Positions 7,345 to 11,988 of a stretch of DNA of 16,507 bases are shown here, piece after piece. The notes beneath the pieces were generated by a model that was not told where the DNA came from, did no database searches, and saw only the letters and a program-made list of their open reading frames with translations. The stretch covers positions 1 through 16,507 of the forward strand of contig JAAWCI010000019.1 of assembly GCA_022793145.1 (NCBI GenBank). The letters run 5' to 3'. How positions within the stretch are numbered: position 1 is the first letter of the stretch; each line of letters opens with the position of its first letter. The DNA comes from Bacilli bacterium. GTDB lineage: Bacteria > Bacillota_I > Bacilli_A > RF39 > UBA660. The position numbers were made by a program, and so were the translations under genes.

Positions 7345-8376
7345 ATGAAACATGAAGTTGATTTAAAAAATTATACTATTCGAACTGATTTGGCGCTTGA
7401 ATCGATAGAAAATAATAGTATTGATAAAATAAAACAAGAATTTGAATCCATTGAAGATATAAAAGTTACAACTACTTATTTGGATGAAAAAAACGGGAAA
7501 AAAATTGATAAAAAAGAAGGTATTTATATTACGATTGAATTTGAAGATGTTACAGATCATAATAATTTGTTAAATGTAGAGAAGGTATTTTCTGATAAAT
7601 TAAATTTTATTTTAGAAAAAGAAAATATTAAAGAAGATGACTTAGGTTTAATTATTGGACTTGGAAATGAGCATTCAACACCTGATGCGTTAGGTCCTTT
7701 AGTGATTGATAAAATTATTGTAACAAATCCACTATATATATATGGAGATTTGGAAGATGGTTATAGAAGAGTTTGTGCAATAAGTCCAGGAGTGACAGGA
7801 GAAACTGGAATAGAAACAAGTGATTTTATCAAATATATCATTGATTGTGTGAAACCAAAATTTGTGATTGTGATAGATGCTTTAGCAAGTGGGTCTATAG
7901 AAAGAGTGAATAAGACAATTCAAATGACTGATACTGGCATTGCCCCAGGCTCAGGAATTGGAAATAAACGTAAGGAAGTGAGCAAAGAACTGTATGGAAT
8001 TCCTGTAATTGCGATCGGAGTTCCAACTGTGGTAGATGCCATTACCATTGTTGCTGATACAATAAAATATATGCAGAAACAATATACATATTCAAAACAG
8101 AATAGTACGAAACCTAAAAGTAGATTAATCCTTTCTCATCAATCAAATTATTTAAAAACTAAGATAGAAGAAAATAAAGAAGATAACAAACAATTATTGG
8201 GGTTAGTTGGAGGGTTAGAAGATGCAGAAATAAAACAATTGCTATTTGAAGTTTTGACACCAATTGGGTATAACTTTATGGTAACTCCAAAAGAGGTGGA
8301 TTTTGTAATGGAAAAATTAAGTGAAGTGATTGGAGAGGGAATTAATCATGCTCTACATAAAGCGATGAAAGATTGA
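7345..8376 (+). CDS. gpr: GPR germination endopeptidase
   Basis: GPR degrades the small acid-soluble proteins that coat spore DNA, releasing amino acids when the spore germinates. The protein has 343 residues and starts MKHEVDLKNYTIRTDLALES, the family's N terminus, where the zymogen cleaves itself near the RTDLA segment. Family blocks visible are LGLIIGLGNEHSTPDALGP with Asp114, VIVIDALASGS with Asp178 and GIAPGSGIGNKRKE. The two Asp residues lie in the blocks that hold the acidic active-site residues of Bacillus GPR. The start is ATG 7345, three bases after GGGTGAT; an ATG at 7333 is upstream of it. The gene shows that this organism makes, or recently made, endospores with alpha/beta-type SASPs. 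spoIIP, its usual downstream neighbour in Bacillus, is not here. Confidence 0.95.
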   Translation: MKHEVDLKNYTIRTDLALESIENNSIDKIKQEFESIEDIKVTTTYLDEKNGKKIDKKEGIYITIEFEDVTDHNNLLNVEKVFSDKLNFILEKENIKEDDLGLIIGLGNEHSTPDALGPLVIDKIIVTNPLYIYGDLEDGYRRVCAISPGVTGETGIETSDFIKYIIDCVKPKFVIVIDALASGSIERVNKTIQMTDTGIAPGSGIGNKRKEVSKELYGIPVIAIGVPTVVDAITIVADTIKYMQKQYTYSKQNSTKPKSRLILSHQSNYLKTKIEENKEDNKQLLGLVGGLEDAEIKQLLFEVLTPIGYNFMVTPKEVDFVMEKLSEVIGEGINHALHKAMKD

Positions 8377-8400
8377 CTTATCTTTATTTTGTGATAGAAT
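8373..8400 (+). promoter_or_regulatory. sigma-A promoter of the PurZ-like operon
   Basis: TTGACT (8373-8378), a 16-base spacer and TAGAAT (8395-8400) with the extended -10 dinucleotide TG at 8392-8393 form one of the best promoters in the window. The -35 overlaps the stop codon of gpr. This gives the four-gene operon its own vegetative transcription, apart from the sporulation-specific gpr. Confidence 0.6.
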
Positions 8401-8430
8401 AAATTCTTAATAAAAAGGCAGGTGATGAAA

Positions 8431-9219
8431 GTGAGAAAATCTTTGTGTAACATTATGGAAGAAACTGAAAAAAGTTCAATTGAACGAGCTGAAGCAATTA
8501 GTCGCCTTATTTTAAAAAAATTAGAAAAAATGATAGGATTATCGCTTGAAATGGATAAAGAGATTAATTCAATTACTTTTATGATTTCTTTATTGGTTGA
8601 TTCTAGTTTTCCATATCAATTTCAATTAAGAAAATTGTTAGAAAAGCATCAGGTAAATGAAAGAAATCTATTGTTATATTTGACGATGAGCTTATATTCT
8701 GTGATACCAGGAAGTAATTCAGAGAAACAACAAATTGCATCTTTGTTATCACTTCCTTATATTGAAAGTATTCTTTCAAAAGGAAATCATTATATAGTAA
8801 AATCAAAATATGGTACAATTGAAATGTTTGCATTAGAGGATTGGTTAAATGATCATAGAATTTGTTTTGCACCGAAAAGATTTAATGGCTTTTGTCACTA
8901 TGCTGTAGAAGCACTAGCACCACTTTTACCTGATGAATATATTACAACTAGTGAATTTAAAAATTTATTTGGAGGCGTTTATTATCATTCTTACTATACA
9001 TTAAAAGATGGTGGAATTGTTGATCCATCTAGAAATCTGTTCTATCCTGGAACTTGTTTTGAAGAAGTTTTTAAACCAAAAGTGGTTGTACAATACCCAG
9101 CTTCCGAATTACAAGAAAGATATCAAAAATTAAAAAAAAGTATGGATCAAAAAGATTTAGTAACTTTGGATCCTGTATGTGCTTTGGCAATGGACCAAAA
9201 AAGGAAAGTGTTAAAATGA
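8431..9219 (+). CDS. unknown protein, paralogue 1 of the PurZ-like operon; possible C-H-D enzyme
   Basis: I do not recognise this 262-residue protein. It has a helical N-terminal half (about 1-110), a strand-rich segment with KSKYGTIEMF, then FCHYAVEALAP, FGGVYYHSYYTLKDGGIVDPSRN and a C-terminal VFKPKVVVQYPASELQERY. The order Cys155, His186, Asp198 and the HSYY...VDPSRN spacing resemble transglutaminase-like or papain-fold hydrolases, which is a suggestion only. It has no signal or membrane segment. It is paralogous to the genes at 10316 and 11079. GTG 8431 is preferred because AGGTGAT stands four bases before it, as in neighbouring genes; ATG 8425 and GTG 8422 are alternatives. Its stop overlaps the next start as ATGA, so the two genes are translationally coupled. 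Confidence 0.8.
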   Translation: MRKSLCNIMEETEKSSIERAEAISRLILKKLEKMIGLSLEMDKEINSITFMISLLVDSSFPYQFQLRKLLEKHQVNERNLLLYLTMSLYSVIPGSNSEKQQIASLLSLPYIESILSKGNHYIVKSKYGTIEMFALEDWLNDHRICFAPKRFNGFCHYAVEALAPLLPDEYITTSEFKNLFGGVYYHSYYTLKDGGIVDPSRNLFYPGTCFEEVFKPKVVVQYPASELQERYQKLKKSMDQKDLVTLDPVCALAMDQKRKVLK

Positions 9220-10312
9220 GAGGAAAAGTTTATGTCGTAGCAGATGGACAAGCTGGTTCATGTGGGAAAGGGAAACTAGTTGGTTATCTTGCTAGAAAAT
9301 TAGATGTAGGTATCACAATTAATCACAATATGCCAAATGCTGGGCATACTTTTGTATTTGATGATGGAAGAAAAGTAGTCACACATCATTTGCCAATTGG
9401 AGTAGTAAATCCTAGAACTACATTGCTAATAGGAGCAGGGCCGTAATTAATCCCGATATTTTATATAAAGAATTAGAGGAAAATAAAGATCTGATTAATG
9501 GGAGAATGCTTTATATTCATGAAAGAGCTGCTGTTGTTTTTGACAAACATATTGTTTTTGAAAGAGAAAATATTCGATCTGGAAGTACTTTCCAAGGTTC
9601 AGCGGCAGCCAATGCAGAAAAATCCCTTCGAATGCCAGGTACTATTTTGGCGAAAGACTACCCTTGGAAGGGGAAAATATTTATTTATGATGATGATTTA
9701 TTTTTTCAAATGAGAAGAGCTGGATTATCAGTATTGATAGAAATGAGTCAAGGGTTTGATTTGGATATGAATCATGGACTTCCATATCCTTATACAACAA
9801 GTAGAGGTTGTACAATTACAGATGCTTTGGCTGATTGTGGGATACCATACAATGATGATATTACATCTTATATGATATTTCGTCCTTATCCAATTCGCAT
9901 TAGTAATGATTCAGTAGAAGGAAAAATTTATACAGGTGATTATGCTGGAAGTAGAGAAATTTCGTGGGAAGAAGTTTGTGAGAGAGCGGGATTGAATTAT
10001 ACAGAAGAGTATACAACAGTTACTAAGAAAAAAAGACGCGTATTCGAGTTTAGTTGGAGCAGATTTTATCATGCAATTGAAGCAAACAATCCTGATTATT
10101 TGGTTCTCAATTTTGCGCAGTATTTAGATGGAACCGTTTTAGAAAGCAAACATATAGAACAGGTACTTCAATCTTCAGCGATTATGGGAATGATTGCTAA
10201 TATTAAAGAATTATATAATAAAGAAGTTATCATGATAGGGACAGGTGCTAAAGAAGGAGAAATTATTGATTTATCAAAAGAAAAAGAGAAGGTTTATTCA
10301 AAAAGGAGTTAA
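9216..10312 (+). pseudogene. PurZ-like adenylosuccinate synthetase homologue, split by a one-base frameshift
   Basis: The N-terminal frame runs from ATG 9216 to a stop at 9444-9446. The rest continues in another frame from GCC 9440 to 10312. Adding one G to the GGG run (9438-9440) joins them as LIGAGAVINPDIL, giving 365 residues; PurA is usually about 430. PurA-family marks are GKGK (18-20 region), MPNAGHT with His44, GSTFQGSAAANAEK, the PYTTSRGCTITDALADCGIP loop and VTKKKRRVF. The WGDEGKGK motif of PurA reads AGSCGKGK, so the catalytic Asp is Ser15. That replacement, the short length and the TSRGCT loop mark the PurZ/PurZ0 branch, whose phage members join aspartate to dGMP on the route to diaminopurine deoxynucleotide. 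The actual substrate here is unknown. The break may be a sequencing error, a real mutation or, less likely, recoding. Confidence 0.8.
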
Positions 10313-10315
10313 GAA

Positions 10316-11095
10316 ATGAGTCTTTTAAATCAAGTTTTTAAAGAAGTTGAGAAGAATGCTTCAGAGCATGATCAATTAATTTGTGAGAAAATTTTAAGAG
10401 AATTAGAAACAATTTATCAAATTCCATTTGTAGGATTTGAAGATCGAACAAACGTTAGTATGATTTTATCTTTTTTTAAGTTATATGGAAATATGAATTT
10501 TCGAGATATGGTCTATGCATTGATGGAAAAAAATCATTTAAATAAACGGTCTTTTTTGTTTCGATTAACGAGTGAAATCTATCCGCCTGATTTTTTTGAT
10601 GAATCAAGAGTTCTTACAAACTGTCTTAATTTAGAAAGAAAATCAGATCATTATCACTTAAAAACATCTTTTGGAACTTTAAAACTATATCGTTTAACAG
10701 ATAAAATTTTAGATCAGGATATTAGATATATTTTGCAAAGAGAAGATATGCATCAAAAGTGTCATGCTGTTGTAGCAATGTTTGCTCCATATTTTCCAAA
10801 TGCTATCATTACAACAAGCAAATTAAATATGTTGTTTGGTGGAAAACAGTATCATTCCTATATGGTATCAGAAGATGGGAGTGGAGTGATGGATTTTTCT
10901 AGAAATACATTTTTTAGTGGGAATTGCTTTAATGAAGTATTTGACCCAGAAGTTGTGATACAATATAAAGCGAGCGAATTAGAAGAACGTTTTAGAGAAT
11001 TTTGTATAAGAAATCCAGAGCTTGTAAATGAATTTTATCCAGTTTTGCAATTAGCACTTAAAGAAGAGGTAGAAAAAAGTGGAAAAAGTATATAG
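10316..11095 (+). CDS. unknown protein, paralogue 2 of the PurZ-like operon; possible C-H-D enzyme
   Basis: This 259-residue protein is plainly homologous to the product of 8431-9219. Shared blocks are KTSFGTLKLY, QKCHAVVAMFAP, ITTSKLNMLFGGKQYHSYM, VMDFSRNTFF and FDPEVVIQYKASELEERF. The Cys149, His180, Asp193 set is kept. The N-terminal helical half is more diverged. It has no signal or membrane segment, so it should be cytoplasmic. The start at ATG 10316 has AAGGAG upstream and follows the PurZ-like gene by three bases. Its own end overlaps the next gene by 17 bases. The family is unknown to me; a papain/transglutaminase-like fold is an inference from the C-H-D order. Confidence 0.82.
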   Translation: MSLLNQVFKEVEKNASEHDQLICEKILRELETIYQIPFVGFEDRTNVSMILSFFKLYGNMNFRDMVYALMEKNHLNKRSFLFRLTSEIYPPDFFDESRVLTNCLNLERKSDHYHLKTSFGTLKLYRLTDKILDQDIRYILQREDMHQKCHAVVAMFAPYFPNAIITTSKLNMLFGGKQYHSYMVSEDGSGVMDFSRNTFFSGNCFNEVFDPEVVIQYKASELEERFREFCIRNPELVNEFYPVLQLALKEEVEKSGKSI

Positions 11096-11795
11096 AAATA
11101 AAAAAGAAGAGTCTGAATATTGGAAATTATATAACGAAAGAAAAGCTAGAAAACTCCTTTCTTTTGTTAAAGAAATTATGGGAGAAGGGATTTCTTATGG
11201 AGAAGCTAAGACACCTTTAGAACGTGTTTCTTATTTGTTAGAACACTTAGATGATGATGCACTTATTAATACTCTTTCTTATTATTTTGGAGAATATCCA
11301 ATAAATGAAAAAGGATTTGTGTTAGAGTTGCTTCAATTACTCGCTAAGTATTCATATGGTCTTTGTACAAAACCAATGATTAATGCTTATAAAAAATTTT
11401 CAATGATAGAAAAAATAGCTCCTAAAATGAGTGGTTTTAAAATTGTAACAAAAAGTGGAACGATTACAGTCTATCGAGCCTTAGAAATTTCAGGAAAAAG
11501 AAGAGTTGCTTTAAAGAATTATCAAATAATTCAAAGAAATGATGTTCATTTGCGAATGGCATTTCTCAATTCTAGCTTTTCAGAAGATACTGTGATTAGT
11601 TGTCTTATGCCTAGAATGTTTGGGGGATTTTCTTATGAACATTATATAAAATTAATAAAAGAGAATGGGTATTTGGATTTGAGACATAATTGTTTTTACC
11701 CAAAATGTGAATTTGAAGAATATTTTGAACCCAAAATATTAATGAGAAGAAAAGGAAAAAATTTAAGAACAGATATTCCACCTTTATTTAAATAA
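11079..11795 (+). CDS. unknown protein, paralogue 3 of the PurZ-like operon; likely without the Cys/His pair
   Basis: This 238-residue protein is the most diverged of the three paralogues. It aligns through KSGTITVYRA, MFGGFSYEHYIKLIKENGYLDLRHNCFY and FEEYFEPKILMRR. At the position of Cys155/Cys149 it has Val (NDVHLRMAF) and at the conserved His it has Glu (SYEHY), with a His one residue later; the Asp is kept in YLDLRHN. It may therefore be a non-catalytic partner of the other two. The C-terminal tail is shorter. The start is GTG 11079, with AGAGGT eight bases upstream inside the end of the previous gene; the 17-base overlap indicates one transcript. It is the last gene of the operon. Confidence 0.78.
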   Translation: MEKVYRNKKEESEYWKLYNERKARKLLSFVKEIMGEGISYGEAKTPLERVSYLLEHLDDDALINTLSYYFGEYPINEKGFVLELLQLLAKYSYGLCTKPMINAYKKFSMIEKIAPKMSGFKIVTKSGTITVYRALEISGKRRVALKNYQIIQRNDVHLRMAFLNSSFSEDTVISCLMPRMFGGFSYEHYIKLIKENGYLDLRHNCFYPKCEFEEYFEPKILMRRKGKNLRTDIPPLFK

Positions 11796-11830
11796 AATAA
11801 ATTAAAAGTTTGATATATTTGTAAATTAAA

Positions 11831-11941
11831 TTGATTGATAATTTGAAAGTTGCTAACTATGATCAATATATTTTGTTGAAACAAAAGATAGAGCGTGTTA
11901 AAAAGTATAATAATATAGATCTTGCTAAAAAAATCTTATAA
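11831..11941 (+). other. short open frame or gene remnant after the operon
   Basis: A 36-codon frame opens at TTG 11831 and ends in the terminator stem. It reads like real protein (for example VANYDQYILLKQKIERVKKY), charged and helical, but has no good ribosome binding site and a stop just upstream. It could be the tail of a lost gene. I cannot place it in any family. Confidence 0.2.
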
Positions 11942-11962
11942 AAAATAAGATTTTTTCTTTTT
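11928..11962 (+). terminator. Rho-independent terminator of the PurZ-like operon
   Basis: AAAAAATCTTA (11928-11938) pairs with TAAGATTTTTT (11946-11956) across seven bases and continues into CTTTTT. It lies 132 bases after the third paralogue and before the nfo promoter. Confidence 0.7.
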
Positions 11963-11988
11963 AAATTTGTTTTGTTTCAAGAAAACCA

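What the first reader, a model, noticed from the sequence alone, without database searches (positions are those of the whole stretch)
8373..11962. Four-gene operon of a PurZ-like enzyme with three paralogous unknown proteins
A promoter at 8373, an ATGA overlap, a three-base gap, a 17-base overlap and a terminator at 11928 define one transcript. It encodes three copies of one unrecognised family wrapped around an adenylosuccinate-synthetase relative. PurZ is known from phages with diaminopurine genomes, where it travels with polymerase and dATPase genes. None of those is here, and the operon sits in chromosomal sporulation/housekeeping DNA. It may be a cellular pathway that makes or uses an aspartyl-purine compound, or a nucleotide-based defence or immunity module. 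The gene set is seen; the function is open.
Basis: partly seen in the sequence, partly recalled or inferred. Interest (0 to 1): 0.85.

Follow-up and report, generated by a model that had tools for sequence, protein, structure and literature searches.

The report
Cellular PurZ-like operon without PurB
A gut bacterium carries, on its chromosome, a relative of the enzyme with which some phages build an altered DNA letter, packed with three related proteins of which two look like thiol enzymes; the cell appears to lack the usual next enzyme, so it may make an unfamiliar amino-acid-tagged nucleotide.

Summary
The operon is real: its promoter hexamers are unchanged in the window and three related genomes, and the whole block is absent from the same gpr-nfo site of a sister species. 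The second gene encodes a chromosomal PurZ-like enzyme: Ser replaces the catalytic Asp of PurA, PurZ-specific substrate contacts are kept, and it joins a bacterial clade next to phage PurZ. In the window its frame is broken near 9440; intact copies exist in relatives, under purifying selection. purB was found in 0 of 37 genomes of the family and in 0 of 22 carriers of PurZ-like genes, so the predicted aspartyl-deoxynucleotide may be the end product. An unlinked MTH1-type NUDIX gene is present in the three held operon-bearing genomes of the genus and not found in the other three; such a domain is fused to 32 of the 120 listed PurZ-like homologues. The three unknown proteins form an orphan family with a Cys-His-Asp triad and a probable papain-like fold; the third has lost Cys and His. 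They occur widely without PurZ, which weakens the idea of a dedicated partnership. Reaction probable, purpose open. New variant of a known kind.

The parts
8373..8400 (+). promoter, TTGACT - 16 - TAGAAT with TGTG before the second hexamer
   Evidence: identical hexamers in window, G001, G002, G006; absent in G003
8377..11981 (.). accessory block between gpr and nfo; in G003 the two genes are 407 bases apart, 377 of them unrelated to the window
8425..9219 (+). P1, paralogue 1 (start ATG 8425 or GTG 8431), Cys-His-Asp present
9216..9446 (+). PurZ-like gene, first piece: GSCGKGK loop and NAGHT motif; frame lost near 9440
9506..10312 (+). PurZ-like gene, second piece in another frame; rest of the active site
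10316..11095 (+). P2, paralogue 2, Cys149-His180-Asp193; model pLDDT 87.6, pTM 0.86
11079..11795 (+). P3, paralogue 3, Cys and His lost (Val, Glu), Asp kept: probably a dead copy
11928..11956 (+). terminator hairpin followed by T tract

Best explanation
This is a chromosomal accessory operon of an uncultured gut Bacilli genus. Its enzyme is a cellular cousin of phage PurZ that most likely joins L-aspartate to C6 of a guanine (deoxy)nucleotide, dGMP first of all, with ATP as phosphate donor, giving N6-succino-2-amino-2'-deoxyadenylate. The substrate is probably supplied in trans by an MTH1-type NUDIX pyrophosphatase that the operon-bearing species carry. Because adenylosuccinate lyase and other Lyase_1 enzymes were not found in the family, the aspartyl nucleotide is not turned into 2-aminoadenine by known chemistry and is either the end product or is worked on by something else. 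P1 and P2, thiol enzymes of probable papain-like fold, are the candidates in the same transcript; P3 is a dead copy that may regulate them. Shown by sequence: gene order, shared promoter, clade, active-site residues, selection, no purB found, co-occurrence with the NUDIX gene. Inferred: reaction, substrate, donor, product fate, any role of P1-P3.
For: Ser at the PurA Asp13 position, directly in the window and in 117 of the 120 listed homologues of 777 found (2 Asp, 1 not readable by the pattern). All three PurZ-unique substrate-contacting residues named for S-2L PurZ (S23, T273, Q308; PMC8342488 section 8) and the adenine contacts N305/F306 are kept in the window species' intact copy P0010; 25 of 30 mapped positions agree. 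Best solved relatives are PurZ of phiVC8 and S-2L (E 3e-44, 6e-41), before Pyrococcus PurA (3e-27) and other PurA (3e-17 and weaker). Trees: cellular rows 97/98 and 95/96, beside phage PurZ, PurA apart. dN/dS 0.085-0.106 between intact copies, like gpr (0.05-0.06) and nfo (0.08-0.10). purB 0 of 37 family genomes and 0 of 22 carriers, while 14 of 14 control genomes ring, 13 over the cut-off; Lyase_1 0 of 25 family genomes, controls 14 of 14. MTH1-type NUDIX (E <= 1e-15) in 3 of 3 held operon-bearing and 0 of 3 other genus genomes, PDB MTH1 E 4e-35; in 193 family genomes 4 have it and all 4 have a PF00709 protein (29 of 193 do; hypergeometric 4e-4, not corrected for kinship). NUDIX box before the PurZ part in 32 of 120 listed homologues (one, P0024, matched to MTH1).
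Against: The intact copies score 202-208 bits on the NCBIfam PurZ model, below its cut-off of 300. Five of 30 mapped pocket positions differ from S-2L (Y21A, C204T, V241I, R244D, P336A). purB is rare in these lineages anyway (2 of 39 in a Clostridia carrier's family), so its absence is a property of the hosts and not of PurZ carriage; the genomes are MAGs, and a non-homologous lyase cannot be excluded: PurA itself occurs without purB in G012, G013, G018. Of 13 carriers tested outside the genus 12 have no MTH1-type gene at E 1e-15, and inside the genus G004 carries another PurZ-like gene without it. The 3-against-3 genus contrast has Fisher p 0.05, is confounded by kinship, and G005 is only 71% complete. 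P1-P3 are not generally linked to PurZ. The enzyme is frame-broken in this window, P2 is frame-broken in G001 and has a stop in G006.
Confidence: 0.42

Rival explanations
1. Nucleotide sanitation: MTH1-type NUDIX releases an oxidised or alkylated purine dNMP (such as 8-oxo-dGMP) and the PurZ-like enzyme tags it with aspartate so that it cannot be re-phosphorylated. P1-P3 are bystanders or regulators.
For: The NUDIX protein of G001 is MTH1-like (E 4e-35) more than MutT-like (1e-12); NUDIX box fused in 32 of 120 listed homologues; in G174 the PurZ-like gene lies next to an OGG-type 8-oxoguanine glycosylase (E 3e-13).
Against: The pocket keeps most dGMP contacts of phage PurZ; OGG neighbour recognised in 1 of 23 loci read; MTH1-type gene not found in 12 of 13 carriers outside the genus.
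Confidence: 0.2
2. P1-P3 and the PurZ-like gene share a transcript by accident of insertion: the paralogues are a lineage-specific thiol-enzyme family with unrelated substrates, and the PurZ-like enzyme works alone or with the NUDIX protein.
For: Paralogue family in 50 of 193 genomes, overlap with PF00709 9 seen against 7.5 expected, same contig in 1 of 9; other copies lie in other neighbourhoods, read by eye as lepB and MerR loci.
Against: Tight junctions (ATGA, 3 bases, 17-base overlap) and shared promoter kept across species about 77% identical in DNA; P1-P3 are under purifying selection too (dN/dS 0.16-0.32).
Confidence: 0.25
3. Antiphage or abortive module that drains dGTP/dGMP and ATP during infection.
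For: Accessory block with presence/absence among sister species; dGTP to dGMP to aspartyl-dNMP would be an irreversible drain without PurB; NUDIX part of P0024 matches candidate defence family PDC-S07 (E 2e-13).
Against: No PADLOC match for the PurZ-like protein P0006, P1 or P2, and only weak ones for P3; housekeeping neighbours; sigma-A-type promoter.
Confidence: 0.08
4. Genuine Z pathway: the host puts 2-aminoadenine into its own DNA or into a resident phage's DNA.
For: PurZ-type active site.
Against: No purB or other Lyase_1 enzyme found in the genus (0 of 6); no DatZ, MazZ or DpoZ recognised beside it; no close relative in viral contigs.
Confidence: 0.04
5. An aberrant PurA that still makes adenylosuccinate from IMP.
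For: Same superfamily; no ordinary PurA in 6 of 6 genomes of the genus by the PF00709 scan.
Against: Asp13 replaced by Ser, adenine-type donor pocket, clade with PurZ; PurA model 105-110 bits against a cut-off of 396; no purB found to use the product.
Confidence: 0.06

Closest known systems
Phage PurZ (succino-2-amino-deoxyadenylate synthase; phiVC8 6FM1/6FKO, S-2L 7ODX)
   Same: Ser in place of Asp13, S23/T273/Q308 and N305/F306 contacts, closest solved structures
   Different: Chromosomal and under selection in bacteria; separate clade; below the NCBIfam PurZ cut-off; no DatZ/MazZ/DpoZ recognised beside it; no PurB found in the hosts; sits with three paralogues of an orphan family
PurA, adenylosuccinate synthetase
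   Same: PF00709 family, GxxGKGK loop, NAGHT and RR motifs
   Different: Catalytic Asp is Ser; donor-site residues F306/Q308 are of the PurZ kind; does not group with PurA
MTH1/NUDT1 (oxidised purine nucleoside triphosphatase)
   Same: The unlinked NUDIX protein of G001 and the NUDIX part of fusion P0024 match MTH1 at E 4e-35 and 5e-35
   Different: Bacterial, co-distributed with or fused to PurZ-like enzymes; a role like that of phage MazZ is only inferred
Papain-like thiol enzymes (LapG, papain-like CdiA-CT, NAT, staphopain, vasohibin)
   Same: Order Cys (helix start) - His (strand) - Asp (next strand); the first 13 structural rows for the catalytic part are of this fold, by title or recalled

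Membership tests
PurZ (phage 2-amino-adenylosuccinate synthetase) | Ser in place of PurA Asp13 | tested here: met
   GSCGKGK in the window piece 9216-9446 and in P0006-P0012; criterion from passages of PMC12884076
PurZ (phage 2-amino-adenylosuccinate synthetase) | PurZ-unique substrate-contacting residues S23, T273, Q308 (S-2L numbering) | tested here: met
   on P0010; residues named in PMC8342488 section 8
PurZ (phage 2-amino-adenylosuccinate synthetase) | groups with phage PurZ and apart from PurA | tested here: met
   sister group to 6 phage PurZ rows, not inside them; the one PurZ0 row fell on the PurA side as a long branch; archaeal Ser/Gly sequences not included
PurZ (phage 2-amino-adenylosuccinate synthetase) | reaches the NCBIfam NF038379 cut-off of 300 bits | tested here: not met
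   202.0 and 207.6 bits for intact relatives; 62 and 116.9 for the two window pieces. So filed as PurZ-like, not as PurZ
PurZ (phage 2-amino-adenylosuccinate synthetase) | travels with DatZ, MazZ or DpoZ | tested here: not met
   operon proteins and 13 other window proteins scanned: none recognised; a 785-aa HD-domain protein lies 6 kb away; rest of the genome not scanned for them
PurZ (phage 2-amino-adenylosuccinate synthetase) | makes succino-2-amino-dAMP from dGMP and Asp | not testable with these tools
   needs enzyme assay
PurA | catalytic Asp13 | tested here: not met
   Ser
PurA | NCBIfam purA cut-off 395.55 bits | tested here: not met
   104.7 and 109.6 bits
Papain-like thiol enzyme (P1, P2) | Cys-His-Asp triad in papain/transglutaminase order | tested here: met
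   P1 and P2, and 19 of 23 rows of A2 and 18 of 21 of A3, the exceptions being P3-type copies
Papain-like thiol enzyme (P1, P2) | papain-like fold | tested here: inconclusive
Papain-like thiol enzyme (P3) | catalytic Cys and His | tested here: not met
   Val and Glu in the window, L022 and L023 copies
Known antiphage system | match to a PADLOC model | tested here: not met
   none for PurZ-like P0006, P1, P2; P3 only weak ones, best E 0.0037

The most novel reading that the evidence does not exclude
Bacteria without PurB use a chromosomal PurZ, fed by an MTH1-type pyrophosphatase, to make an aspartylated deoxyguanosine nucleotide as an end product (metabolite, signal or precursor), and in this genus two thiol enzymes of a new family process it: a non-viral, non-DNA use of PurZ chemistry.
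Probability: 0.25. Interest if true: 0.85.

Novelty: new variant of a known kind. Interest (0 to 1): 0.6.

Why it matters
PurZ is known from phages that swap adenine for 2-aminoadenine. A bacterial clade with nearly the same active site, in cells where the second enzyme of that route was not found, and often fused to or (in this genus) co-distributed with an MTH1-type pyrophosphatase, suggests that PurZ chemistry has a cellular use that is not 2-aminoadenine DNA. It is directly testable with intact genes from relatives, and it may bear on where phage PurZ came from.

Tried and rejected
Tried and led nowhere: Pfam, NCBIfam, PHROGs and PADLOC on the three paralogues (only sub-cut-off rows such as Hemocyanin_N, best E 0.0017), profile search of PDB sequences (nothing under E 0.16), viral structure library (no match at E 0.001), Rfam, tRNA, paralogue P2 in phage records (none), PurZ-like protein in viral contigs (9 pattern matches, none a relative; such a scan finds close relatives only). 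Structural families not listed by VIA-align are not excluded.

Rejected: ordinary PurA (residue, tree, scores); host Z-DNA (no lyase found); paralogues as obligate PurZ partners; a phage or plasmid as the direct source (housekeeping flanks kept in the window and G001, G002, G006; best phage hit 40% identity among 60 listed of 203, plasmid hits at most 32% among 20 listed of 31). Promoter score alone was rejected as evidence; conservation was used instead.

Limits: the 193 family genomes were an even draw from a larger group; counts by E 0.001 include fragments and weak hits. The trees are rooted at the midpoint for drawing, with PurA far off; archaeal PurA/PurZ were not included. In the first tree the PurZ0 phage row joined the Agrobacterium row on the PurA side (long branches, 90/38), against the published grouping of PurZ0 with PurZ. 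The second tree left out six rows (Moki_PurZ0, Agro_pAt, PurA_L019, G004_C61, P0113, P0090). 35 of the 120 listed homologues (P0007-P0126) were put in the first tree. One of the 22 carriers (G180) has Asp at the Ser position (sequence printed).
Full report
Observation. The window is chromosomal: ribosomal protein S20, germination protease (gpr), AP endonuclease (nfo), superoxide dismutase, a penicillin-binding protein and L33 surround the operon. P1, P2 and P3 are one family. The promoter hexamers and spacer length are the same in the window, G001, G002 and G006 and missing in G003. A hairpin followed by T ends the unit.

The block is accessory. In G003, of the same genus with gpr 91% identical, gpr and nfo are 407 bases apart, 377 of them unrelated; tblastn with P1, P2, P3 and the second PurZ-like piece finds nothing there and blastn only chance-level words. 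G003 also has no PF00709 or paralogue match anywhere. G004 has a P3-like gene after gpr and then its contig ends; G009 has other genes there. So window 8377-11981 is a present/absent block. The window is 97% identical to G001 over the operon and about 77% to G002 and G006.

State of the genes. In the window the PurZ-like frame is lost near 9440; G001, G002 and G006 have it open. G001 has P2 in two frames and G006 a stop in P2. Whether these are assembly errors or real cannot be told here. Between intact copies dN/dS is 0.085-0.106 for the PurZ-like gene, 0.05-0.10 for gpr and nfo, 0.21-0.32 for P1-P3 between species (0.16 for P3 against G001): the enzyme is kept, the paralogues change faster.

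The enzyme. Solved structures rank phiVC8 PurZ (E 3e-44) and S-2L PurZ (6e-41) first, then Pyrococcus PurA (3e-27), 7vf6 (3e-21, PurZ0 of a Gordonia phage according to a passage of PMC12884076) and other PurA (3e-17 and weaker). The loop GSCGKGK has Ser where PurA has Asp13. PMC12884076 (passages read) reports Ser in all 147 phage PurZ sequences and 99% Asp in its PurA group; its PurZ group held four archaeal sequences, and I saw no bacterial one mentioned. Mapping 30 positions of the S-2L enzyme (PMC8342488, sections 7 and 8; also passages) on the intact copy P0010 gives 25 kept, among them S23, T273, Q308, N305, F306, N49, H52, Q190, R240, R280, and five changed: Y21A, C204T, V241I, R244D, P336A. 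Two trees, 57 and 51 rows, put the bacterial rows in one group (43 rows, 97/98; 40 rows, 95/96) beside phage PurZ with PurA apart; the PurZ0 row fell on the PurA side in the first, with poor support for its join. Of the 120 listed homologues (777 found) 117 have Ser, 2 Asp and 1 is not readable by my pattern. The passages of the two papers differ on which donor PurZ and PurZ0 prefer, so ATP as donor is a prediction from the N305/F306/Q308 contacts only.

What is missing. TIGR00928 (purB) rings in 14 of 14 control genomes (13 over the cut-off) but in 0 of 37 genomes of the window's family and in 0 of 22 carriers of a relative of the PurZ-like protein, 12 of this family and 10 Clostridia genomes (one of the 22, G180, has Asp at the Ser position). 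Lyase_1 (PF00206) is found in 0 of 25 family genomes. In the family of one Clostridia carrier purB is in 2 of 39, so the lack is a habit of these small genomes and is not tied to PurZ. Three family members have true PurA without purB (G012, G013, G018). Either an unknown lyase exists or succinyl-purines are end products here.

What comes with it. In 32 of 120 listed homologues a NUDIX box precedes the PurZ part; the NUDIX part of P0024 matches MTH1 in the PDB at E 5e-35. Where named, the fusions are from Clostridia (P0060, L062, L063). A NUDIX gene lies beside the PurZ-like gene in L064 and L121 and two genes off in L124; that of L121 (G198) is not MTH1-like at E 1e-15. In the window's genus an MTH1-type gene (G001 copy: E 4e-35 to MTH1, 1e-12 to MutT) lies between lemA and dxs in G001, G002 and G006, all with the operon, and is not found in G003, G004, G005, where the operon was not found (G004 carries a different PurZ-like gene; G005 is 71% complete); between lemA and dxs G005 has other genes. 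The names lemA and dxs are read by eye. Of 193 family genomes 4 have it, and all 4 have a PF00709 protein: PurZ-like in G001 and G143, PurA in G013 and G018. Outside the genus 1 of 13 carriers tested has it, so it is not universal. Other neighbours in 23 loci read (L024-L026, L062-L066, L068, L070, L072, L121-L132): an exopolyphosphatase/GppA-like gene in 6 (three tested, E 2e-11 to 7e-13 but far below the curated cut-off; the other three by like sequence), an OGG-type glycosylase in 1 and cytidine/dCMP-deaminase-type genes in 2. Of the 23 loci's neighbours only those named were scanned. The recognised ones point to the nucleotide pool.

How it may work. PurZ-like plus Asp plus ATP turns dGMP (from the NUDIX protein or normal turnover) into the succino compound; without PurB it stays so, unless P1 and P2 act on it. 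Confidence in guanine-nucleotide aspartylation is about 0.6, in a thiol-enzyme nature of P1 and P2 about 0.7, in their acting on the product about 0.25. These are judgements, not computed.

In print. Searches of the held library returned 6, 3, 6, 3, 19 (10 listed), 78 (10 listed) and 5 papers; none of the titles and abstract starts listed describes a bacterial PurZ-NUDIX fusion or a cellular PurZ role. Two of these papers were opened in part; subscription papers are mostly not covered.

Noticed in passing
P0024, P0022, L062:5539-7071, L063:5539-7071: A NUDIX (MTH1-like in P0024) or, in P0022, a GNAT domain is fused to the PurZ-like enzyme; one Clostridia genome has two near-identical NUDIX-fused copies, each near an ORF6N-like gene (label recalled, not scanned).
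   Followed up: partly
G012, G013, G018: Full-length PurA with no purB or any Lyase_1 protein found in the same genomes.
   Followed up: partly
P0020, P0031: Two PurZ-like proteins have Asp back at the Ser position and at the same time Asp in place of Gly next to the active-site His, an apparent coupled change; L128 (G180) looks alike.
   Followed up: no
L095:2156-6738 (Agrobacterium plasmid): PurA/PurZ-like 533-aa protein near a UvrD helicase, a metallophosphoesterase, an integrase and VapBC; weak PADLOC matches (E 4e-6): possible mobile or defence island.
   Followed up: no
L122:3680-4525 and neighbouring gene: OGG-type 8-oxoguanine glycosylase gene beside a PurZ-like gene, anaerobic ribonucleotide reductase nearby.
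   Followed up: partly
L024, L025, L125, L126, L129, L130: A longer PurZ-like subtype (about 456 aa, GSCGKAK) sits directly after an exopolyphosphatase/GppA-like gene.
   Followed up: partly
window 8377-11981; L137, L138: The gpr-nfo interval is variable among relatives: this block, 407 bases without it, or other genes.
   Followed up: yes
L027:3409-3687: A 93-aa PurA-N-terminus-like frame (GGLYEKEGKGK) in G006 beside genes that look like a nucleoside transferase and a PnuC-type transporter (labels recalled).
   Followed up: no
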